64,000 nt of DNA from Verrucomicrobiota bacterium. Lineage in GTDB: Bacteria; Verrucomicrobiota; Verrucomicrobiia; Verrucomicrobiales; DEV007. Of this stretch, positions 7,500-63,226 are shown piece after piece. The notes beneath the pieces are model-generated. The model had not been told where the DNA came from. It saw only the letters and a list, made by a program, of their open reading frames with translations, and searched no databases. Made by a program: the position numbers and the translations under genes. How positions within the stretch are numbered: the first letter of the stretch is position 1; each line of letters opens with the position of its first letter. The stretch covers positions 17,751 to 81,750 of the forward strand of contig DAOUQC010000009.1 of the NCBI GenBank assembly GCA_030625775.1, in the 5' to 3' direction.

Positions 7500-8456
7500 A
7501 TGTCTGAAAGTCCTTCTATACGATTAATAGAGCATTTACGGCGTTTTTTTGAAAACGGAGGATTTGCCGCATTTGCCTTATGTTTACTGCTGGGATTCGA
7601 CACCCTCTTACTGGGGTTGTTATTGACTCCGGGTGGAGACCACGGCATCGGAGCATTTGCGGATGAATTGCGGGTATGGTGTTTCGGACTTGATTCGGCA
7701 ACCGGAAAATTAGAATGGAGTTATGTTTTTTCCATGCTATTCCCCCCCCTCTTACTGTCCGGAGCGCTCCTTCTTTTCTGGGGCAAACCCGTGCGCCAGA
7801 TTTTTTCCCAACCGCGCTCCCTGGCCCTGCACCTTCTTCCCGCTCTGATCCTGGTTGCTGGTTGTGGTGCATCCTTTGCATTTTTGGCAAATCCATCCCA
7901 GGGCGACAAGCTGGAATTTCCTGCAGAGGAAATCAGGACGCACCTGCCTACACCAAATCTCAATCTAATCAATCAAGCTGGCGAAAAAGTCGATCTGGCT
8001 GACATGCGTGGCAAAGTAGTCGTGCTCACCGGGATTTACACTTGCTGCGTGCAAACCTGCCCATTAATTATCTTGCAGGCAAAATCAGCCATCGCGGATT
8101 TGCCGCCGGAGCTTCTCAAAGATCTGCGCTTCGTAGCAGTGACCATGGACCCCATTCGTGACACCCCTGAAAAGCTGAAGGAATTTGCGGAAATGCAAGG
8201 AATAGCCCCACCTCTCTATCAACTGGTTACGGGGGAGGTTGAGAAAGTTGAAGCCACTCTGGACGCTATGGGCATTGCTCGGGAACTGGATAAAGAAACC
8301 GGCATTATCAGCCATGTTAATCAATTCCTTCTGGTAGACAAAGACGGCAAAGTTGCCTATCGCCTGGGCTTGGGAGAGCGGCAAAAAAAATGGCTCAGCT
8401 CGGCAATGCAGGTTTTGCTCGAAGAAAATGGTGATGAAGAAAGGCTTGTCCACTGA
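7500..8456 (+). CDS. SCO1/SenC-family protein with N-terminal membrane segments
   Basis: TGIYTCCVQTCPLI (CxxxCP), AVTMDPIRDTPEKLKEFAE, and a C-terminal conserved His region; thioredoxin-like SCO signature. Confidence 0.85.
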   Translation: MSESPSIRLIEHLRRFFENGGFAAFALCLLLGFDTLLLGLLLTPGGDHGIGAFADELRVWCFGLDSATGKLEWSYVFSMLFPPLLLSGALLLFWGKPVRQIFSQPRSLALHLLPALILVAGCGASFAFLANPSQGDKLEFPAEEIRTHLPTPNLNLINQAGEKVDLADMRGKVVVLTGIYTCCVQTCPLIILQAKSAIADLPPELLKDLRFVAVTMDPIRDTPEKLKEFAEMQGIAPPLYQLVTGEVEKVEATLDAMGIARELDKETGIISHVNQFLLVDKDGKVAYRLGLGERQKKWLSSAMQVLLEENGDEERLVH

Positions 8457-10627
8457 TGTCCGGTACAACGCCCAGTGAAGACAAGCAGACTAGTTCAGAG
8501 AGTCAAGTGGGGGAAATCGAGTTAACCGTTCCGGATCTGACAGACCTCCTGCCCACTGCCTTTGACAACAACAACACCTCGACCGTCGATCCCCCGGTTC
8601 GTGGAGAAATAATCCTGCGATCTCTGGAAAAGTTGTTTCTACGCTTTGACCGCCTGATAGCCCTAGGGCTTCCAAAGGAATACAACCCCTTTCTACAAAC
8701 CGGCACCATCGCCATGGTTTCCCTGTTGATTGCTACGGCAACCGGCGTTCTGCTGCTGCTCTGGTATTCTCCCAGCGTAGTTCAGGCATTCGCCAGCGTA
8801 TCTGCGATGGATGCAGCACCGTGGACCAGCGGACTGGTTCGTTCACTTCACCGCTACAGTTCCGACATGTGCCTGTTTTTCACTCTGGCGCATGCCATCC
8901 GGCTGTTTTCCCAGCGGCTGTTCACCGGAGCCCGGTGGCTGGCATGGGTCTCAGGCATATCCATGATGGGAATCATCTGGTTTATAGGGTGGACAGGATA
9001 TTGGTTGGTATGGGATGAACGGGCGCAACATCTGGCCGTCGGCTCGGCAAAAGCTCTCGATATCTTACCAATATTCGCAGACCCCATGGGCCGGACCTTT
9101 CTGGTAAATGAAACCGTGAATTCATTGTTGTTCTTCGTCATCTTTTTCACCCACATAATGATTCCCCTGGTTTTCGGGATTGCCTCCTGGCTTCATCTTG
9201 CCCGGATTTCACGACCAAAATTTCTCACTGACAAGTGGATGTCTTACTGGGTAGTGGGCACCCTGCTGGCTATCAGCATTTTCTATCCCGCCACGACTGC
9301 TGAGCCGGCGAATATGACGGCCATCAACCAGAGTTTCACCATGGATGCATGGTATCTCTTTCCGATCACCCTGATGGACCGGTTGAGCGGAGGCGCTCTA
9401 TGGGGAGTCATACTGATAAGCGGCTCCCTGGCATTTTCGATTCCCTGGTTACTGGGAAGAGGACGCCCCCGCAGTGCCCTCGTGATCACTTCACGCTGTG
9501 ATGCCTGTGGCAACTGTTATAACGATTGTCCCTACAATGCCATCACCATGGTGTCGCGTAAGGGCAGCCTAAACGAACGCTACCCAACCGTTGCGCACGT
9601 AGACTCCAATCTGTGTGTTGGTTGCGGGATTTGTGGAGGATCCTGTGATACTGTCGGTAACGGATTGCCTTGGTTCGATACCACTGAAAAACGCAAAATC
9701 ATGCGTTCCTGGATAAAAGAAATGCAGGAAGCAGGAGAAAAACCCTTCATCGCTTTGGTTTGTGAAAACTCAGCTGGAATGGATTTGAAAGTCGATTTGC
9801 AATCCGGTGTGTGTGAAGAATTACCCGGCTATCGGGTTTTAAAAATTCCCTGTGCCGGGTGGATTCACCCACTGACAATCGAAGGCTTGGAGAGAAAAGG
9901 TGCGGAGGGTGTGCTGGTGGTGACCTGCGGCCCTGGTGAGTGCCGCTACAGAGAAGGAGCCAAGTGGACACAGCAGCGAGTCGATGGTGAGCGCTCTCCT
10001 GCATTACGCAACGAATATGCAGACCGCAAAAAAATCCTCATCCTCAATCTGGACAAAACAAGCCGGAAGAAAATGATTGTGCAAGGTTCGGCCTTTCAAC
10101 AGGGCGAACATGTGATAAACGATGTAAAACCTTCCAAGGCAGCGATGGGATTCACTGCAACCTTACTGACTTTGTTTATTGCCTGCTTGATTGCCGTGGG
10201 CAGTGACATCCCATACACCACTCCCGCTCAGACAGGCTCGACCCTGGTCGTCACCTTCCGGCATCCCGGTCAGGTTTCCGATGTAGTCAAAAGACTGACA
10301 AGTGAAGAACTGGAAGCTCTGCCCATGCATATGCGTCAGGAGGAGATACGGGAGAGAAAACGGATGCCCGTCCGGCTGCGCATCCGTATCGACGGACAAG
10401 TGATCCGGGAGGGAGTTTATACCCCCAAAGGTATATGGGAAGACGGACCCAGTGTCGCTGTAGAGAGCATTTCCCTTTCACCTGGCAGCCACAAGGTGGA
10501 GGTCTCTGTAGGAGACGGAAAAGATGAAAAAAAATGGCAGTTCAATAATGAAAAAGTCATCGAATTTACCAACGAAACAAGACGGGTGCTTATCTTTGAT
10601 CGAGTGAAAGGTTTTTCATGGTATTGA
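8456..10627 (+). CDS. Cytochrome b(6)-like / 2[4Fe-4S] ferredoxin / MvhD-FlpD-like fusion protein
   Basis: N-terminal cytochrome b (SLHRYSSDMCLFFTLAHAIRLF, WTGYWLVWDERAQ), CDACGNCYNDCP and CVGCGICGGSC motifs, then CENSAG...KIPCAGWIHP...VVTCGPGECRYREG (MvhD-like), one further TM and a soluble tail. TGATG overlap with the SCO gene. Confidence 0.82.
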   Translation: MSGTTPSEDKQTSSESQVGEIELTVPDLTDLLPTAFDNNNTSTVDPPVRGEIILRSLEKLFLRFDRLIALGLPKEYNPFLQTGTIAMVSLLIATATGVLLLLWYSPSVVQAFASVSAMDAAPWTSGLVRSLHRYSSDMCLFFTLAHAIRLFSQRLFTGARWLAWVSGISMMGIIWFIGWTGYWLVWDERAQHLAVGSAKALDILPIFADPMGRTFLVNETVNSLLFFVIFFTHIMIPLVFGIASWLHLARISRPKFLTDKWMSYWVVGTLLAISIFYPATTAEPANMTAINQSFTMDAWYLFPITLMDRLSGGALWGVILISGSLAFSIPWLLGRGRPRSALVITSRCDACGNCYNDCPYNAITMVSRKGSLNERYPTVAHVDSNLCVGCGICGGSCDTVGNGLPWFDTTEKRKIMRSWIKEMQEAGEKPFIALVCENSAGMDLKVDLQSGVCEELPGYRVLKIPCAGWIHPLTIEGLERKGAEGVLVVTCGPGECRYREGAKWTQQRVDGERSPALRNEYADRKKILILNLDKTSRKKMIVQGSAFQQGEHVINDVKPSKAAMGFTATLLTLFIACLIAVGSDIPYTTPAQTGSTLVVTFRHPGQVSDVVKRLTSEELEALPMHMRQEEIRERKRMPVRLRIRIDGQVIREGVYTPKGIWEDGPSVAVESISLSPGSHKVEVSVGDGKDEKKWQFNNEKVIEFTNETRRVLIFDRVKGFSWY

Positions 10628-10820
10628 ATGATGTTCAATACCAATATATGCGCACAAAAAACAGTAATGATGCAGGGCTGGCAGCAATTTTGTTTGTCAA
10701 TTCGTGTTAACATATTGAAATTGGCTATAGCAAAAGCCTGCCCGGGTTCAGGTCAATAAGCCCAGGCAAAACGGACCACCGAAAAAGTTAAAAGTTAGAA
10801 CAGTTCAAATCATAAAGCAG

Positions 10821-11375
10821 ATGAAAAATAAAACCCCCACTCAGAAAAAAATCGCTCGGAAAACAGCAGCCAGAAAAACCACTGCTCGGAAAACCACTGC
10901 TCGGAAAACTCCTGCGAAAAAAACCACTGCTCGGAAAACTCCCGCTCGGAAAACCCAGGTAAAAAAATCTGACAATACATTAAAATCACTCAAATCTGTT
11001 CTCAAGCGGATGATAGAGATCCGGGATAACATGGAAGAATTAAATGCTGAAATGAGGGAGCTCTATACTTATGCTGCACAGCTTGCTTCCGGTATCGAAA
11101 ACATAACAGCGGAAACAACCCCAGCCAGCCATCCCCTTTTCCAGTCCAAGCTGTGGAAATTTCTAAAAAAGGAAAAGCCAACTATCTTAATCCCCTCCAA
11201 AATAGCTAAAGAAAGGAAGTGGACCAATCAGGATGGTAAAACCATAGTTGCCACCTTGATTAGCATCACAGATGATGAGGCTGTTTTGAAAACCAAAGGG
11301 GGGGTGGAATACCGCTATCCCATCGAAGCTCTCTCAAGTGAAAACCAGGCAGAGATAGCAACGCTTACACCCTGA
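10821..11375 (+). CDS. Lys/Ala/Thr-rich histone H1-like tail fused to an SHD1-like domain
   Basis: N-terminus ARKTTARKTTARKTPAKKTTARKTPARKT; C-terminus RKWTNQDGKTIVATLISITDDEAVLKTKGGVEYRYPIEALSSENQAEI resembles SLA1 homology domain 1. Confidence 0.65.
   Translation: MKNKTPTQKKIARKTAARKTTARKTTARKTPAKKTTARKTPARKTQVKKSDNTLKSLKSVLKRMIEIRDNMEELNAEMRELYTYAAQLASGIENITAETTPASHPLFQSKLWKFLKKEKPTILIPSKIAKERKWTNQDGKTIVATLISITDDEAVLKTKGGVEYRYPIEALSSENQAEIATLTP
10858..10951 (+). repeat. In-frame ~15-bp tandem repeat (ctcggaaaaccactg) encoding ARKTT units
   Basis: Several near-identical copies of gctcggaaaaccact visible by eye. Confidence 0.8.
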
Positions 11376-11452
11376 AAAAAAACTTGAGCGCTCCCCACAC
11401 GTCGGATGACTCCTCCGACCAAAAATCCACTTGCTGACTCGAATTTATCTTA

Positions 11453-11938
11453 TTAAAAAAATTGGAACCCACGTGTTCCCGCCACGGCACCAACAATGGC
11501 TATCAAGCTCACGATCAGTAAAATTACATGCATGCGCTGGAGCCACTTGAACGCATTTTCTGAATCCTTGGCTGCCTGTTCACTGAACCAACGATGAAGA
11601 AAGGCCGGCTCCAGAACAAATAAAACCAGAGTAAATATAAACCACACAAAAGTCATTAAATGCATCCACCAGAATGAAGGATCGGCATACCTGCCCCAGG
11701 CATTCAAAAACCAGGTCATATAAAAACCCGACAGCCCTGTGATCGTCGTCGCCACTCTCGCCTGCATTGCAAAACGGCGCTCCAGCTTCTCAAAAAGTTT
11801 AAAGCGCTCTTTAGTATCAGATAAACTTCTAAGGGCAGGAATCAGTACCGTGGTCACAAAAGCCACTCCGCCGATCCACAATACCACCCCGATGACATGC
11901 AGAATGCGGGCAAGGATGAATAACTCGATACTTCTCAT
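11453..11938 (-). CDS. CopD-like integral membrane protein
   Basis: Four hydrophobic helices with conserved His (ARILHVIGVVLWIGGVAFVTTV; MHLMTF; MHVILL). Confidence 0.5.
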   Translation of the reverse strand: MRSIELFILARILHVIGVVLWIGGVAFVTTVLIPALRSLSDTKERFKLFEKLERRFAMQARVATTITGLSGFYMTWFLNAWGRYADPSFWWMHLMTFVWFIFTLVLFVLEPAFLHRWFSEQAAKDSENAFKWLQRMHVILLIVSLIAIVGAVAGTRGFQFF

Positions 11939-12084
11939 ATTTATTCTTCAAGCTCCTGAGAGACCTTTGCAAGTGCTCTTCGATTGTTAATTCCACAAGT
12001 TCCAGTTGAAGTGAAGCCTTGTTGCGGCCACTGATGAAGTGTCTGAGTTACGATTAAACAAATCGCCTGTTAGCAAAAAAGATA

Positions 12085-12918
12085 ATGACGAAGCACTCTG
12101 GAAAAGTTTATCTGGTCGGTGCGGGTCCTGGCGACCCGGGTCTGGTCACTTTGCGTGCCAAGGAACTGATCGAATTGGCTGAAGTGCTGGTTTATGACAA
12201 TCTCGCCAATCAGCACCTTCTCGAATGGGCCAATTCCGATTGTGAAAAAATTTATGTTGGCAAAGAACCTGGTCGCCATGCAGTTGAACAGGATGAAATC
12301 GAAAACATACTGGTTGGGCATGCGGAAAAGGGGCGACAAGTCGTCCGCCTGAAAGGGGGGGATCCCTTTGTATTTGGGCGAGGTGGCGAAGAAGCCCGGA
12401 GACTGGAAGTCGCAGGCATACCCTTTGAAATCGTGCCGGGAATCACTGCGGCCCTGGCCGCTGCGGCCTATGCAGGCATCAGCTTGACCCACCGCGATTA
12501 CAGCTCTGCTATTAGTTTTATCACCGGACACGAAAATCCCGAGAAGAAGGAATTCCGAGTCGATTTCGAACGCTTCGCCAACAACGGCGGCACCCTTTGT
12601 ATCTACATGGGAATGGGTCAACTCCCCCGTATTGTCGGCGATTTGCTGACTGCCGGCCAGTCACCTGGCACACCAGTTGCGATTGTGCAATGGGCTACTC
12701 TCAGCAAACAACGCTCGGTTTTTGGTAAACTCGAAACGATAAATGATATCGTCACTGAGGCAGGTGTATCCTCCCCGGCCATGATCATCGTCGGAGATAT
12801 CGTTGCGCTGCACAAACAGGTTTCCTGGTTTGAAAAGCAGGACCCTCAAACCCTGGCTGAAGCTGAAAGCCGGTTTTTTGATGCTGAAAAAGGAACCGCA
12901 AAGGACCAACAGGAATGA
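12085..12918 (+). CDS. nirE: Uroporphyrinogen-III C-methyltransferase
   Basis: GKVYLVGAGPGDPGLVTLRAKELI, VVRLKGGDPFVFGRGGEEA, VPGITAALAAAAYAGISLTHR are SUMT signatures; the symbol (rather than cobA) is chosen because of the nir context. Confidence 0.9.
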   Translation: MTKHSGKVYLVGAGPGDPGLVTLRAKELIELAEVLVYDNLANQHLLEWANSDCEKIYVGKEPGRHAVEQDEIENILVGHAEKGRQVVRLKGGDPFVFGRGGEEARRLEVAGIPFEIVPGITAALAAAAYAGISLTHRDYSSAISFITGHENPEKKEFRVDFERFANNGGTLCIYMGMGQLPRIVGDLLTAGQSPGTPVAIVQWATLSKQRSVFGKLETINDIVTEAGVSSPAMIIVGDIVALHKQVSWFEKQDPQTLAEAESRFFDAEKGTAKDQQE

Positions 12919-56289: not shown

Positions 56290-58083
56290 TCAGTCTTGGC
56301 GCGTCAACATGATCAGGCGAAAATCCATCACTTGGGAACCGGGGATTTTCAGCGCGCGCAGGGTCAACTCACCTTTACCCTTCTCAAGGCGCATGGTACC
56401 CAGCTTCAGGGACTTGAAGTACTTCACGTCCCCTTCCGTATTATCAATCTTGTTGTGCTTCGCTCCGTGCAGGGGAGGATCATGGGCCTCACTGATCTTT
56501 CCCGTGAGCTTATTGTCATTGAAAGCCAGTTCGATGATCGATCCCACATCTGCCACCGGGCAGGTATAGAGTATCTCAACTTCAAAATTTCCCGTAGCCG
56601 GCACCTCCGCATCCCAGGTGATTTTGTCATCCAGCTTCGTCCAGTTTTTAAAATACGAGCAATTCGGCGGACGTGCCGAACGCTCAATACCTCCATGCGC
56701 AATTCCGTCGCGGGCGGGAATCTGGGTATATTTGTAATCCGGGTGACCGATCAAAAACGGCCGCCCTCCCTTTTTATAAGTCGGCACGGTTGCCTCACGC
56801 CAATCCTTCGCCACCTTGCGTAAACGCGCGGCCTGCTGCGGGTATTGATCCGCCACATCCTGATCCTGTCCTGGATCTTTCTCTATCTCAAAAAGCTTGT
56901 CTTTATGATCCAGGCGAAATTTCTGCGAGCGCACACTCACACGTTCTCCGTTTTTCCCGCCCCATTGATTGATTAGAATCCGATCCTTCCAGCTTACCGG
57001 CTTCCCCATCAACAGCGGCTTCAAACTGATCCCATCGAGCGGCTTTTCACTCACCATTTTAATGCCTGCCAGATCGGTCAAAGTCGGCAACAGATCAATC
57101 GCCGCCCCGATCTGCTCGATTTTTTTACCCTTGGCAATTTTTCCCGGCCACCGAATTAATAAAGGAGAGCGCACCCCGCCTTCATCCGTCGAACCTTTTT
57201 TTCCCCTCATGCCTCCGTTCCAACGCCAGCCATTGGGGCCATTGTCACAGAAATACAGGACGATGGTATTTTCCGCCAGCTTGAGATCATCCAACTTCTT
57301 CAGCAGACGCGCCACATTCCAATCAATATTTTCACACATCGCCAATGCCGCCTGCGTATGCACGATCTTTTCTTTTTCCGGATCCCTGTTCTTCAGACCC
57401 AAGTTCTGATCCTTGTGTTTGTCCCAGAATTTATCCGGGACCTGCATCGGCGAGTGCGGTGTATTAAAAGGGATATAAGCAAAAAACGGCTTGTCCTTGT
57501 TCTTTTCGATGAAGGCCATCGCCTTATTGGTGAAGTCATCAATGATGAAACCTTCCCCACGCACCAACTGGCCATTATGCTCCAGCATCGGGTCAAAATA
57601 ATTGCCCCAATGCCCCGAGCAAAAACCGTAATATTCGTCAAATCCGCGACCATTGGGATGATAGGGGTACTGCATGCCATTGTGCCACTTACCAAAAGCG
57701 CCGGTTGCATAACCCGCAGCCTTGAAACTGTCGGCGATTGTTTTTTCATCGAGATTCAAGCGCTCCCCCCCAGCCGAAGTACTGTAAACACCACCTCGCG
57801 CATGATAACGCCCGGTCAGGAATTCCGCCCGTGTGGGAGAACAGACTGCACAGACAAAAAAGCGCTCAAAGCTGGCACCATCCCTTGCCAATCCGTCAAT
57901 GGTCGGCGTCTTCAGGTTGCTGTTACCATTCAGGCTCAAGTCACCCCAACCCTGGTCATCGGTCAATATAACCACGATATTTGGTGGTTTATTCTCCGAA
58001 TAAGAACTCGTCACCAAAAATAAAACTGCCAGAATGGACAAACAGAATCTCACTAAAAAAAAGGGGGTTTTCATTATTATCAA
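56290..58083 (-). CDS. Sulfatase, formylglycine-type
   Basis: [38 protein letters not shown] (C-S-P-T-R modification motif), C-terminal beta domain. Confidence 0.92.
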
Positions 58084-58250: not shown

Positions 58251-58523
58251 ATGGCAAAAGCAATGATGGACCCCGAAGAGGTAAGACGTTTCGCTGAGGA
58301 GCTGAAGCGTTTCAATGGTGATCTACAACACCGGCTGACCTCGCTGCAAGCCCGCTTCTCCTCCCTCGGTGAGAGCTGGCAGGATCAGGAAAATGAAAAA
58401 TACAGTGAAGAATTCAAAGTCACTGTAAAAGCCCTCAAAAAATTCGTCGAAGCCTCCAACCAACACGTGCCCTTCCTGCTGCGAAAGGCGCAACGCATCG
58501 AGGATTATCTCGAGCAACGCTGA
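58251..58523 (+). CDS. WXG100-like small helical protein (WQD motif)
   Basis: 90 aa two-helix protein with central LGESWQDQENEKYSEEF. Confidence 0.72.
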   Translation: MAKAMMDPEEVRRFAEELKRFNGDLQHRLTSLQARFSSLGESWQDQENEKYSEEFKVTVKALKKFVEASNQHVPFLLRKAQRIEDYLEQR

Positions 58524-58549
58524 TTCCTAATTTTTAATTCATAATTCTA

Positions 58550-59089
58550 GTGCCCGGCCCCCAAGCTAAAGTCACCTCAATCGAAACTCTGGACTCGTTC
58601 CGGAGTTCATTGGTGGTATACCTGGAAAAAGCAGGAACCACTCTGGATGAGATTAATCACGAAGTGCGCCGCACCCGTCACCAGCTCCAGAATGAAAAAC
58701 TGCTCCTCTGGAAAATGGAATTACGTAAGCGTACCAAAGCTCTCGACCTGGCCCGCAGTGAATATTTTTCTGCCCGACTCGTCAATACCGGCACCGGAGT
58801 CACCGGCAAACAAGTCGCCGTGAGACGTGCGACCGAAGCCAAACGGGAAGCTGAGGACAAATTGCGCAAAATCAAAAAATGGTGCCGGGATTACGACAGT
58901 GAGATCGAGCCCCTGGCGAAAAAAGTTGAGAATCTTCGCCAGTCTCTGCTCTACGAATTGCCAAACGCTGTAGCCTTTCTGGAACAAGCCGCCAAATCCC
59001 TCAGTGAATACGCAAGCATGCGCCCGGCGGGAACAGCTGCCCCGGCACTGACCCCAAACCCTGAAGATGAAGAAGGGAGCAAGTCATGA
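58550..59089 (+). CDS. Coiled-coil protein of the T7SS-like cassette
   Basis: 179 aa, GTG start; VTSIETLDSFRSSLVVYLEKAGTTLDEINHEVRRTR..., extended heptad-like helices; ATGA overlap with the next gene. Confidence 0.6.
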   Translation: MPGPQAKVTSIETLDSFRSSLVVYLEKAGTTLDEINHEVRRTRHQLQNEKLLLWKMELRKRTKALDLARSEYFSARLVNTGTGVTGKQVAVRRATEAKREAEDKLRKIKKWCRDYDSEIEPLAKKVENLRQSLLYELPNAVAFLEQAAKSLSEYASMRPAGTAAPALTPNPEDEEGSKS

Positions 59090-59298
59090 GCCTGGTTTCC
59101 AACCGAACTCGATTAGCCACATTAACCAAAATACTGGTTAACGACTGGCACAACACCAAGGAGTATTGGCAGGACAAACAGGCCGGGTATTTCGAAAAAC
59201 ATTACATCGATGACCTCACACACAATGTCAGTTCCACCATAGAGGTTATTGAAAAACTCGATAAACTAATCACCCGGGTAAAAAAAGATTGTGAGTAA
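59086..59298 (+). CDS. Second small WXG100-like protein (WQD motif)
   Basis: 70 aa; EYWQDKQAGYFEKHYIDDL resembles SWQDQENEKYSEEFKVTV of the 58251 protein; overlaps neighbours. Confidence 0.5.
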   Translation: MSLVSNRTRLATLTKILVNDWHNTKEYWQDKQAGYFEKHYIDDLTHNVSSTIEVIEKLDKLITRVKKDCE

Positions 59299-62200
59299 AC
59301 AGAATCCATTAGGTATACAGGCAAGCCTAGAACTTCTCGATCATCTGCAGGAGACGATTGTAGATACGGTCGAAAAAGAGACACTGCTCAATCGCTCAAT
59401 CAGCTTGAGCACCTACACTCTCGAAAAACAACAGGACGAATCACTCGAAGCTGGCAGCGCTCAATTTGAAGCCGGCATCGAGCAGCTGGATGAGCAACTG
59501 GACCTAGCTAAAAAACAAGCTCAGGCCAAATCCGAGCAACGCCAACAATGGATTGACCGTGCCTGGAAAAACAGCAAACAAAGCTTTCTGCAAAAACTCG
59601 AAGAATCCGAAGGGCACCGCAAATACAGCATCCAGAAAACGATGCTGGATAGCGAAAAAAGCCACAAAGCCGCCTTGTCGCAAAGCGAATCAGATTTTGA
59701 GGAATTTCAGACAGCCCTGGCAAGCGACCGCAGAATCTTCAAATCCCTGGCTGCCCTGGCAAGCAAGTCCTTTCGTGGTTATCCGGTTTTTCTAAAAAAA
59801 CAATCCTCCGCATTAAAAAACGAGGAAGCCAATCATTCACCCGCCCAAAAAAGCGCAGCTGAAAACCGCAGTGATCTGCACCAGGAGCTGCAACTCACCG
59901 ATGCCGGATTGCTGGACTTTCGCAAACATTTCCTGCCCCGATTTTTCAGTATTTTGCCATTGTCGCTGCTGTGTGTCCTGATCATTATTCTCCACTTGCC
60001 GCTGATTCCTGTGCTCACACATTTCGGCATCGAAAAATCCATCTGGGAAACACTGGCAACATCGGCAATTGCTTTCATGATAGGCGGCGGCATTTTACAC
60101 TTGATTGGCAGAATTTGCTGGCAAAATGAAGCCTCTGCCATCATCGCCAGCCTTGCCCAATCTCGACGAATGCTCACTCACTGTGAGCAAGCCCTCGGCA
60201 ACTTCCATGAGCAAGTCCGTGAGCAGATAAAGGAGGAGCATCAGAACACTACTACGGAACTCGATAATAAGTGGAATGACGTTCTGACAAGTTCCGCACA
60301 AACCCGGCAAGCCAAACCCGAAGCTGTAATCGATGATAAAAAACAACGTGCCCTCGCTACTCTTACCCGTCGCCACCAAACGCAAATTCAACAAATCGAA
60401 AGTGCACACGACAAAACAGTCAAACGGCGGCAACAGGAATTCGATGACCTGACCCGGCAAAGTAGTGATACCTGCCACAGTGCGATTCAACAAGCTGAGG
60501 CCGAACACCGGAAAAACCATCAAACCTTGATTAAAGAATGGAAAGAAACCGTCGAGCCAATTTACGCCATCATCTCGACCAGCCAAAAAACAGCCACCGA
60601 ACAATTCCCTTATTGGACATCCGCTCATTGGCAGAACTGGAATGCCCCGCAATCTTTCTACCATTTTGCCAAACTCGGTGAGCTGGAAGTGGACTTGACC
60701 GAACTGTGCGACAAGTTACCGAAAGACGAACAACTCGCTCTTCCCGGACCGACACAGTTTTCGCTACCCCTGTTACTGGATCTCCCCAATCACGGCTCTC
60801 TGCTACTCGAAACAAGCGAGCGCGGGCATGCTGAAAGTGTCTCCACCCTCAACCACCTGATCCTCACCCTTTTGACGGGAGCCCCTCCCGGCAGAGCCAG
60901 TTTCACCATCATTGATCCGGTCGGTTTGGGCGAAAATTTTTCCAGTGTCATGCATCTGGCGGATTACGAAAACAATCTCATCAATGATCGCATCTGGACG
61001 CAGACCGAACACATCGACCAACGACTCGCGGAACTGAACGAGCACATGGAAAAAGTGATCCAGATGTATCTACGCAACGAATACGAAACCATCGCAGAAT
61101 ACAATCAGCAAGCTGGCAACATTGCAGAGAAATATCACTTTTTAGTAGTCGCTGATTTCCCCAGCGGTTTCAGTGACATGGCTACCAAACGGCTCCTGAG
61201 TATCGCCGCCAGTGGAGCACGTTGCGGCGTTTACACCCTCATCCACTGGGATACACGACGCACCCTGCCCCAGGATTTTGTTGCTGCGGAACTGCGCAAA
61301 AGCAGCACCTGCATCAGCTGTGATGAAAATGGCTTCACCCTTGCCGGTTATTCACCAGTCGGAACTAACCTTGACCTCGATACCCCGCCGGACCCAGAAA
61401 TTTTCACCCAATTGATTCAGAAAATCGGCGAGGGCAGCAAAGACGCCAACCGCATCGAGGTTCCCTTTTCCCATGTCACTCCTGCCGATGATGAACTGTG
61501 GACCGGAGATACCACCACCGAACTGCGTGTCGCCATCGGACGCAGCGGCGCCACCAAACTGCAATACCTGGCGATCGGCAAAGCCACCCGCCAGCACACC
61601 CTGATTGCCGGTAAAACCGGTTCGGGCAAGTCCACGCTCTTTCATGTCATCATCACCAATCTGGCTCTCGGCTGCAGCCCGGATGAAGTTGAGTTCTACC
61701 TCATCGATTTCAAAAAGGGTATCGAGTTCAAATGTTACGCCACCTACAAACTCCCTCATGCGCGGGTGATTGCCATCGAAAGTGACCGTGAATTCGGCCT
61801 GAGCGTACTCCAGCGGGTAGACGAAGAATTAAAACGCCGCGGTGATATGTTTCGCAAACTTGGGGTTCAGGATCTCGCTGGATACAAAAAGGCAGGAGGT
61901 AGCGAAGCCGTTCCCCGCTCCTTACTGATGATCGACGAGTTCCAGGAACTGTTTGTCGAAGACGATCGTATTTCACAAAGCGCCTCCATGCTGCTCGACC
62001 GCATCGTGCGTCAGGGGCGGGCCTTTGGCATCCACGTCATCCTCGGGTCCCAGACCCTCGGCGGGGCCTATACTCTGCCCCGAACCACGATGGGGCAAAT
62101 GGTGATCCGTATCGCCCTGCAATGCAACGAGGCCGACGCCTACCTCATCATGGATGACAGCAATCCGGCACCACGGTTGCTCTCCCGGCCAGGGGAAGGC

Positions 62201-63226
62201 ATCTACAATGACAGTGCCGGAGCCATCGAGGGCAACAGCCCCTTCCAAACCGTCTGGATCTCGGACGAAGAGCGTGATGAAGCCTTGAAAAAAATAGCTC
62301 GACTGGCTGAAAAAAGTGACCATGATTTCCCCGCAACTGTCGTTTTTGAAGGCAATGCCCCGGCAGACGTTCGCGAAAATACCAAGCTCGCACAATTACT
62401 TCATTTGCCCTCGGCCGCGACCTCCTCAACCAGCTGCAAAGCCTGGTTGGGAGCCCCCAACTCCATCAAGGGACCGACCGAAGCCGTTTTTCATCGTCAG
62501 AGCGGCAACCACCTGCTCATAGTCGGCCAGAACGATGAAGCCGCACAAGCCATCACATCGGTTTCGCTGATCAGCCTGGCTGCACAGCAGGATCCGGAAC
62601 GCAGCCATTTTTACCTGATCGACAGCAGTCCGCCCGACTCACCCCAACGCCTCCTGTTTGAGTCGATCACCCGGGACCTCCCTCACCAGGCTTCTACTAT
62701 CAACGGGGGCAGCATTCCCGACACCCTCAACAAAATCACCCGGGAATTGGATCGAAGATCTGATGACAGCTCAGGTGGCGACCTCCCTGGCAATATTTTC
62801 CTGATCATCAACGGCCTGCAACGTTTCAAGAAACTGCGTTACGAAGAAGACTTTGGCTTTTCGATGGATGACTCCGACACCCCGGCCAATCCCGGAGCAC
62901 AGCTGGATCGAATCATTCAGGACGGTGCCAGCCTCGGTATCCACCTGATCGTGATCTGTGATACCTACAACAACGTGAATCGATTCCTCAGTCGCAAAGC
63001 CGTCAGCGAATTCGAAATGCGGGTGCTTTTCCAAATGAGCGCCAACGATTCAGCCAGCCTCATCGACACCCCGAAAGCCAGCCAACTGGGCCTCAACCGC
63101 GCCCTTTTTTACAACGAACAGGAAGGCTATCTGGAAACCTTTCGCCCCTACGCCCTGCCTGCTCAGGAATGGTTCAAAGAGGCCCTTGAACAACTCAACA
63201 GCGCACGACTCACCACAAGTTCGTGA
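59291..63226 (+). CDS. FtsK/SpoIIIE (EssC/EccC-like) ATPase with long coiled coil and central TM pair
   Basis: Walker A IAGKTGSGKSTLFHVII (~61.6 kb), YLIDFKKGIEF, LLMIDEFQELF (Walker B), HVILGSQTLGGAYTLPRTTMGQMVIRIALQC; flanking P-loop-less FtsK-like modules. Confidence 0.85.
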   Translation: MSKQNPLGIQASLELLDHLQETIVDTVEKETLLNRSISLSTYTLEKQQDESLEAGSAQFEAGIEQLDEQLDLAKKQAQAKSEQRQQWIDRAWKNSKQSFLQKLEESEGHRKYSIQKTMLDSEKSHKAALSQSESDFEEFQTALASDRRIFKSLAALASKSFRGYPVFLKKQSSALKNEEANHSPAQKSAAENRSDLHQELQLTDAGLLDFRKHFLPRFFSILPLSLLCVLIIILHLPLIPVLTHFGIEKSIWETLATSAIAFMIGGGILHLIGRICWQNEASAIIASLAQSRRMLTHCEQALGNFHEQVREQIKEEHQNTTTELDNKWNDVLTSSAQTRQAKPEAVIDDKKQRALATLTRRHQTQIQQIESAHDKTVKRRQQEFDDLTRQSSDTCHSAIQQAEAEHRKNHQTLIKEWKETVEPIYAIISTSQKTATEQFPYWTSAHWQNWNAPQSFYHFAKLGELEVDLTELCDKLPKDEQLALPGPTQFSLPLLLDLPNHGSLLLETSERGHAESVSTLNHLILTLLTGAPPGRASFTIIDPVGLGENFSSVMHLADYENNLINDRIWTQTEHIDQRLAELNEHMEKVIQMYLRNEYETIAEYNQQAGNIAEKYHFLVVADFPSGFSDMATKRLLSIAASGARCGVYTLIHWDTRRTLPQDFVAAELRKSSTCISCDENGFTLAGYSPVGTNLDLDTPPDPEIFTQLIQKIGEGSKDANRIEVPFSHVTPADDELWTGDTTTELRVAIGRSGATKLQYLAIGKATRQHTLIAGKTGSGKSTLFHVIITNLALGCSPDEVEFYLIDFKKGIEFKCYATYKLPHARVIAIESDREFGLSVLQRVDEELKRRGDMFRKLGVQDLAGYKKAGGSEAVPRSLLMIDEFQELFVEDDRISQSASMLLDRIVRQGRAFGIHVILGSQTLGGAYTLPRTTMGQMVIRIALQCNEADAYLIMDDSNPAPRLLSRPGEGIYNDSAGAIEGNSPFQTVWISDEERDEALKKIARLAEKSDHDFPATVVFEGNAPADVRENTKLAQLLHLPSAATSSTSCKAWLGAPNSIKGPTEAVFHRQSGNHLLIVGQNDEAAQAITSVSLISLAAQQDPERSHFYLIDSSPPDSPQRLLFESITRDLPHQASTINGGSIPDTLNKITRELDRRSDDSSGGDLPGNIFLIINGLQRFKKLRYEEDFGFSMDDSDTPANPGAQLDRIIQDGASLGIHLIVICDTYNNVNRFLSRKAVSEFEMRVLFQMSANDSASLIDTPKASQLGLNRALFYNEQEGYLETFRPYALPAQEWFKEALEQLNSARLTTSS

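What the first reader, a model, noticed from the sequence alone, without database searches (positions are those of the whole stretch)
58251..63226. Minimal type VII secretion-like cassette in a putative diderm: two WQD-type WXG100-like proteins, a coiled-coil protein and a single EssC-like ATPase
Seen: four tightly packed same-strand genes, two overlapping their successor (ATGA at 59086; 8-nt overlap at 59291), ending in a 1311-aa FtsK-like ATPase. Established: WXG100 proteins plus FtsK/SpoIIIE-type EssC/EccC ATPases define T7SS in monoderms. Inference: this is a stripped-down T7SS-like or contact-dependent system. I see none of the other T7SS membrane components (EssB/EsaA/EccB/EccD/EccE-like) next to it, so it may use a different envelope route or serve another function.
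Basis: partly seen in the sequence, partly recalled or inferred. Interest (0 to 1): 0.8.

Follow-up and report, generated by a model that had tools for sequence, protein, structure and literature searches.

The report
Toxin-free type VII-like export cassette
A four-gene set in a Verrucomicrobiales bacterium, found intact in a large part of its class, encodes a stripped-down relative of the type VII protein-export machines known from monoderm bacteria; it probably pushes small helical proteins through the inner membrane, and it is a chromosomal, toxin-less cousin of toxin-carrying gene clusters already glimpsed in diderms.

Summary
In detail: four overlapping or closely spaced + strand genes at 58251-63226. 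Gene 1 is a WXG100 protein (Pfam, above cut-off) with WQD in place of WXG. Gene 2 is a predicted long helical hairpin. Gene 3 is a 70-aa W-x-D protein. Gene 4 is a 1311-aa ATPase whose core matches EccC/EssC far better than FtsK, by sequence and by predicted structure. It has two transmembrane helices and three ATPase-like domains, of which only the middle one keeps Walker motifs. The quartet is complete in 69 of 72 named verrucomicrobial loci with enough upstream DNA, with no conserved neighbours. YukD, EssB and EsaA were not found in the genome. The closest relatives outside the cassette lie on plasmids and defence islands (Rhodococcus, Caballeronia, Helicobacter, Verrucomicrobiota), often with toxin-immunity genes beside the WXG100 gene; the CoCoNuT paper already described this type. 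The cassette differs: chromosomal, single copy, membrane-anchored, no toxin. Best reading: an inner-membrane type VII-like export motor with its own small cargo. Secretion is untested. WXG100 proteins in Verrucomicrobiae were noted in 2011, so this is a new variant of a known kind.

The parts
58251..58523 (+). g1: WXG100 protein, 90 aa, WQD at residues 43-45
   Evidence: PF06013 E 3.5e-9, 37.2 bits against a cut-off of 27.3; TIGR03930 E 8.5e-7 but below its cut-off; 33 invariant columns in 20 sequences
58550..59089 (+). g2: 179-aa protein predicted as one long antiparallel helical hairpin (helices 9-78 and 81-157) with a low-confidence tail; no named family
   Evidence: AlphaFold2 pLDDT 86; only generic coiled-coil hits in the PDB; single copy, found only where g4 is; profile match to the N-terminal part of a Rhodococcus toxin-like protein, rank 1 of 472
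59086..59298 (+). g3: 70-aa W-x-D protein, WXG100-like; the stop of g2 overlaps its start (ATGA)
   Evidence: Invariant W21, W28, D30, F36, D68, C69 in 21 sequences; hhalign 82% to a 79-aa WXG-like protein beside a toxin-like gene in another Verrucomicrobiota genome
59291..63226 (+). g4: EccC/EssC-like ATPase, 1311 aa: N-terminal Glu/Lys/Gln-rich, presumably helical region (about 1-210), TM 221-239 and 255-273, second such region (about 280-430), degenerate ATPase-like domain (about 440-720), active FtsK-type domain (about 735-990, Walker A GKTGSGKST 774-782, Walker B LLMIDEF), degenerate ATPase-like domain (about 1015-1300); starts 8 nt inside g3
   Evidence: TIGR03928 8e-30, TIGR03924 2e-29, FtsK PRK10263 2e-7; EccC 4nh0 best in the PDB by sequence and by fold, E 2.6e-32; TM helices; Walker motifs

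Best explanation
A minimal type VII-like protein-export unit of the inner membrane. g4 is the motor: two membrane helices anchor it, a presumably coiled-coil region stands where EssC has its FHA domains, and the middle ATPase domain is the only one that should hydrolyse ATP; by analogy with EccC/EssC it acts as a hexamer. g1 (WXG100) is the co-exported activator and g3 a short WXG-like partner. g2 is the main cargo, or a secreted structural component: it sits in the slot that holds toxin proteins in related mobile clusters, but has no toxin domain. Shown here: gene content, co-conservation, family assignments, predicted membrane helices, single intact ATPase domain, missing T7SS partners. Inferred: hexamer, export across the inner membrane, cargo role of g2, partner role of g3, and an origin from toxin-carrying systems.
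For: g1 is a WXG100 over the Pfam cut-off. The g4 motor matches T7SS EccC/EssC profiles at about 1e-29 against FtsK at 2e-7, and the top eight PDB fold matches are EccC or EssC. Two TM helices in 68 of 74 named relatives, as in EccC/EssC and unlike most toxin-type ATPases. Four genes nearly always together, with overlapping ends; g2 is found only where g4 is. Relatives of g1 (E 4e-25 to 2e-9) and g4 (E 5e-139 to 3e-62) sit beside toxin-like genes: Helicobacter WHH/HNH nuclease plus SUKH immunity protein, a Caballeronia protein with a nuclease-like C-terminus, ParB-like C-termini in Rhodococcus and G569. Cassette and toxin-type motors form one clade, 100/100, apart from EccC/EssC.
Against: No secretion data. 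No outer-membrane component and no other T7SS membrane partner is known for it. No YxxxD/E export motif in g1 or g3. The related Caballeronia cluster carries CARF, VWA, phosphatase and kinase genes that act inside cells. The g2 link to toxin N-termini rests on one clear profile match. Nesting of the cassette among toxin types is not significant (p-AU 0.075).
Confidence: 0.58

Rival explanations
1. An intracellular conflict or defence module: the ATPase and the WXG100-like proteins form a cytoplasmic or membrane-bound assembly that senses or acts on invaders, with no secretion.
For: The nearest toxin-type relatives sit with CARF, VWA, PP2C and kinase genes (L154; similar ORFs in L164 and L165) or TerD-type genes (L153), and their ATPases mostly lack clear TM helices. 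PMC11090510 files them with restriction systems.
Against: The cassette itself has no such recurring neighbours in 20 loci, has membrane helices, is single copy and holds no nuclease. PADLOC gives g4 mainly FtsK-domain matches such as SspH and mad8.
Confidence: 0.2
2. A housekeeping envelope machine, for example an inner-membrane scaffold in division or cell shape, in which the T7SS-like parts are used without export.
For: Chromosomal, single copy, widely kept (51 of 287 sampled genomes of the class), no toxin, no conserved neighbours.
Against: Absent from many close relatives, including sampled genomes of whole genera of the same family and Akkermansia, so not essential; the export-type pairing of WXG100 with its ATPase is intact.
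Confidence: 0.17
3. A DNA translocase or conjugation coupling protein with unrelated small proteins.
For: The FtsK_SpoIIIE domain is shared with FtsK and TcpA.
Against: EccC/EssC models and structures score far better; the genome has a separate FtsK-like protein of 882 aa with four TM stretches; no other gene recurs in the flanks; g1 is a WXG100 over cut-off.
Confidence: 0.05

Closest known systems
[quoted passage not shown] 2012 as a likely mobile, stand-alone secretion operon
   Same: Part for part: EssC-like ATPase with N-terminal coiled coil and three ATPase domains of which only the central one is active; one WXG100 with the motif and one without; a coiled-coil protein (for examples)
   Different: That module lacks TM helices, its coiled-coil protein carries a nuclease domain and is followed by a further protein, and it is embedded between VWA genes near TerY-P genes. 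The cassette has two TM helices, no toxin or immunity gene, no VWA/TerY-P, and a cassette-type g4 can coexist with a CoCoNuT-type module in one genome (G474, G573)
T7SSa (ESX), T7SSb (Ess/Yuk) and T7SSc-j (PMC11217815)
   Same: WXG100 protein plus a membrane-bound EccC/EssC-family ATPase with two TM helices
   Different: No YukD/EsaB, EssB or EsaA found in the genome; no EccB/D/E-like recurring neighbour; three rather than four predicted NTPase domains; no FHA domain; WQD for WXG; diderm host
WXG100 plus FtsK/SpoIIIE pairs of Gram-negative bacteria, with WXG100 proteins listed for Cyanobacteria, Lentisphaerae, Proteobacteria and Verrucomicrobiae (Sutcliffe 2011, not held; cited in PMC6471051 and PMC10765036)
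   Same: Very likely includes this family
   Different: As cited, only occurrence and pairing were noted; the fixed four-gene unit, TM helices, g2/g3 and the relation to toxin clusters are worked out here

Membership tests
Type VII secretion system (any subtype) | EccC/EssC-family FtsK-type ATPase | tested here: met
   TIGR03928 8e-30, TIGR03924 2e-29, both below their equivalog cut-offs; best PDB matches EccC/EssC by sequence and fold; a sister clade rather than inside EccC/EssC
Type VII secretion system (any subtype) | ATPase membrane-anchored by two TM helices | tested here: met
   Hydropathy: 221-239 and 255-273; two in 68 of 74 relatives
Type VII secretion system (any subtype) | WXG100 protein encoded with the ATPase | tested here: met
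   PF06013 37.2 bits over cut-off 27.3; quartet complete in 69 of 72 loci
Type VII secretion system (any subtype) | Literal W-x-G motif in the WXG100 protein | tested here: not met
   W43-Q-D45, W and D invariant in 20 sequences
Type VII secretion system (any subtype) | Secretion of the WXG100 protein driven by the ATPase | not testable with these tools
   Needs an experiment
T7SSa (ESX) | YxxxD/E export motif in the small proteins | tested here: not met
   Absent from g1 and g3 and not conserved in g2
T7SSa (ESX) | EccB, EccD and EccE partners | tested here: inconclusive
   No conserved neighbour beside the cassette in 20 loci; not searched genome-wide
T7SSb | YukD/EsaB, EssB/YukC and EsaA partners | tested here: not met
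   PF08817, PF10140 and TIGR03929 find nothing in the 96%-complete genome, while the B. subtilis control rings
CoCoNuT-type WXG100/EssC module | ATPase with three ATPase domains, only the central one active; two WXG-like proteins; coiled-coil protein | tested here: met
   domains, Walker motifs; g1, g3; g2
CoCoNuT-type WXG100/EssC module | Nuclease domain on the coiled-coil protein, VWA/TerY-P flanks, no TM in the ATPase | tested here: not met
   g2 is 179 aa and ends after the hairpin; neighbours are a sulfatase and a metallophosphoesterase and vary in relatives; TM present
DNA translocase FtsK | Best match to the FtsK equivalog and several N-terminal TM helices | tested here: not met
   PRK10263 2e-7 against 8e-30 for EssC; two TM helices at 221-273, against four in the genome's own FtsK-like protein

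The most novel reading that the evidence does not exclude
A self-contained four-protein type VII-like exporter of diderm bacteria that needs none of the known T7SS membrane partners, derived from toxin-delivery modules by loss of the toxin and now serving the cell's own envelope biology.
Probability: 0.3. Interest if true: 0.8.

Novelty: new variant of a known kind. Interest (0 to 1): 0.58.

Why it matters
[quoted passage not shown] A toxin-free chromosomal version with only four genes, present across Verrucomicrobiia and reaching another class of the phylum (L169), is a simple place to test it, and to ask which parts of a type VII machine are really needed. If it exports, the minimal set is one motor and three small helical proteins.

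Tried and rejected
g1 against g2 by profile: no relation (3%). g1 against g3: only a local match over the W.D region, 28%, so 'two WXG100 proteins' rests on the indirect link through L163. g2 against the REase- and HNH-type toxin N-termini: not separable from controls (ranks 11 to 77 of 472); only the Rhodococcus ParB-like protein is clear, and L163 is just above the best control. PDB fold search with g2: generic coiled coils only. Conserved neighbours in 20 loci: none besides the four genes, apart from a few shared by close relatives. Extra g2 copies, for example fused to toxins, in 48 related genomes: none. More homologues of the ParB-like toxin proteins: none in plasmids or in 196 genomes of the phylum.

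Full report
Observation. They lie between a divergent sulfatase gene (56290-58083, - strand) and a metallophosphoesterase gene (63330 onward), neither related to secretion. The window lies on contig 19 of a 4.88-Mb, 158-contig, 96% complete genome. Named near relatives are Verrucomicrobiales MAGs.

Identity of the parts. g1 matches PF06013 WXG100 at 3.5e-9, above the gathering cut-off, and is the only WXG100 found in the genome. Its motif is WQD; W43 and D45 are invariant in 20 sequences. g4 matches the EssC and EccC models at about 1e-29 and FtsK at 2e-7; all T7SS matches are below the equivalog cut-offs, so it is a relative and not an EssC or EccC proper. In the PDB by sequence the best chain is EccC of Thermomonospora curvata (organism). 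An AlphaFold2 model of residues 431-1311 (pLDDT 81) finds EccC first (E 2.6e-32), with EccC and EssC filling the top eight places and FtsK at 7e-11 or weaker. The core has three ATPase-like domains. Only the middle one keeps Walker A (GKTGSGKST) and Walker B (LLMIDEF); the first and last have lost the P-loop in all relatives inspected. Two TM helices at 221-239 and 255-273 are conserved: two in 68 of 74 and at least one in 72 of 74 named relatives. g2 has no family and is predicted as a hairpin of two helices of about 70 residues (pLDDT 86); the PDB gives only generic coiled coils. g3 has seven invariant positions in 21 sequences including the start, among them W28-x-D30 and D68-C69. Its link to WXG100 is indirect: it matches a 79-aa 'GWRD' protein encoded beside a toxin-like gene in genome G569 (hhalign 82%, E 1.1e-5), and that protein has a weak, below-cut-off WXG100 match (E 0.026).

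Conservation. Of 20 loci from the order, 19 have g1-g2-g3-g4 in this order; the exception (L040) keeps g3 and g4 only. Of 72 named loci from across the class with at least 1100 bp upstream, 69 are complete. g2 occurs once per genome and was found only in genomes that have g4. A TGTGA sequence at the g3 end, which can start g4, recurs in most loci. Apart from the quartet there are no shared neighbours, except a few in close relatives, so the cassette is an autonomous unit. It is patchy: present in 51 of 287 sampled genomes of the class, absent from the sampled Akkermansia-like genus and from some genera of the same family, and present in another class of the phylum (L169), though one distant ATPase (L170) has no recognisable g1-g3 beside it.

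Wider family. Searching plasmids with g4 found relatives in Rhodococcus, Caballeronia, Deinococcus and Helicobacter. Their neighbours include WXG100 proteins that the g1 profile finds at 4e-25 to 2e-9. In the Helicobacter plasmid the order is WXG100, nuclease (WHH/HNH, Colicin-DNase), SUKH immunity protein, 77-aa protein, ATPase. In Caballeronia it is VWA, WXG100, 436-aa protein with an FEVKCG-type nuclease-like end, 113-aa protein, 76-aa protein, ATPase, CARF, VWA, PP2C, kinase. In Rhodococcus the ATPase carries a TerD domain and is followed by a 314-aa ParB-like protein, a 73-aa protein and a WXG100. Verrucomicrobiota themselves hold toxin-type copies (L163, L164, L165), in three genomes that also have a cassette-type g4 elsewhere. 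So g2 occupies the toxin slot without a toxin. The g2 profile matches the Rhodococcus protein over 140 residues (hhalign 81%, E 1.2e-5), first among 472 comparisons that include coiled-coil-like and shuffled controls; the other toxin proteins are not clearly separated from controls.

Phylogeny. A tree of the active domain puts cassette and toxin-type motors in one clade (100/100) apart from EccC and EssC (97/96 in the larger tree with FtsK and DptH-like rows). Toxin types branch around the cassette, which hints at toxin loss, but a single toxin clade is not rejected (p-AU 0.075) and several branches are long.

Prior art. The CoCoNuT paper (PMC11090510) describes the toxin-type module in detail, including the single active central ATPase domain, the coiled coil and the two WXG100-like proteins, states that those ATPases lack TM helices, and credits Anantharaman et al. 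2012 with seeing it as a likely mobile element that can be a stand-alone secretion system. Sutcliffe 2011, as cited in PMC6471051, had listed WXG100 proteins in Verrucomicrobiae. The survey of T7SSc-j is limited to Gram-positive bacteria (PMC11217815). What is added here is the fixed, toxin-less, membrane-anchored, chromosomal four-gene form, its distribution, and its position relative to both families.

Mechanism. Shown: parts, linkage, domain state, predicted membrane helices, missing partners. Inferred: that g4 assembles as a hexameric motor in the inner membrane, that g1 and g3 act as activator and partner, and that g2 is cargo or a secreted structural part. How anything would cross the outer membrane is unknown; a periplasmic end point is the simplest assumption. 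It works like a T7SS in the parts that could be tested, but it is not filed as T7SSa, T7SSb or CoCoNuT-type, because defining features of each were tested and not met.

Noticed in passing
L168 (G107, contig 12; genus of small 2-3 Mb genomes that look like Akkermansia), 7734-12755: A different small cluster: 836-aa ATPase of the g4 family, a 316-aa protein with a hydrophobic stretch, two 97-aa WXG100-like proteins (g1 profile about 5e-6) and a Sel1-like repeat protein, near a DNA methyltransferase-like gene; suggests a second T7SS-like type in this genus.
   Followed up: partly
L157 (Helicobacter sp. NHP19-012 plasmid pNHP190012_1), 6734-11136: WXG100 - WHH/HNH nuclease - SUKH immunity - 77 aa - EssC-like ATPase on a plasmid of a Gram-negative bacterium: a compact candidate toxin-export operon.
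   Followed up: partly
L153 (Rhodococcus sp. AH-ZY2 plasmid), 7924-11892: EssC-like ATPase with an N-terminal TerD domain, inside a cluster with other TerD genes and a DUF475 gene.
   Followed up: partly
window 59280-59298 and relatives: The C-terminus of g3 (Asp-Cys, usually Asp-Cys-Glu) is almost invariant and overlaps the g4 start; D and C stay even where the overlap differs, so the cysteine may matter in itself.
   Followed up: no
L138, L103, L044: Cassettes with extra DNA: about 1.7 kb inside the ATPase gene (L138), about 1.2 kb between g2 and g3 (L103), about 0.6 kb between g3 and g4 (L044).
   Followed up: no
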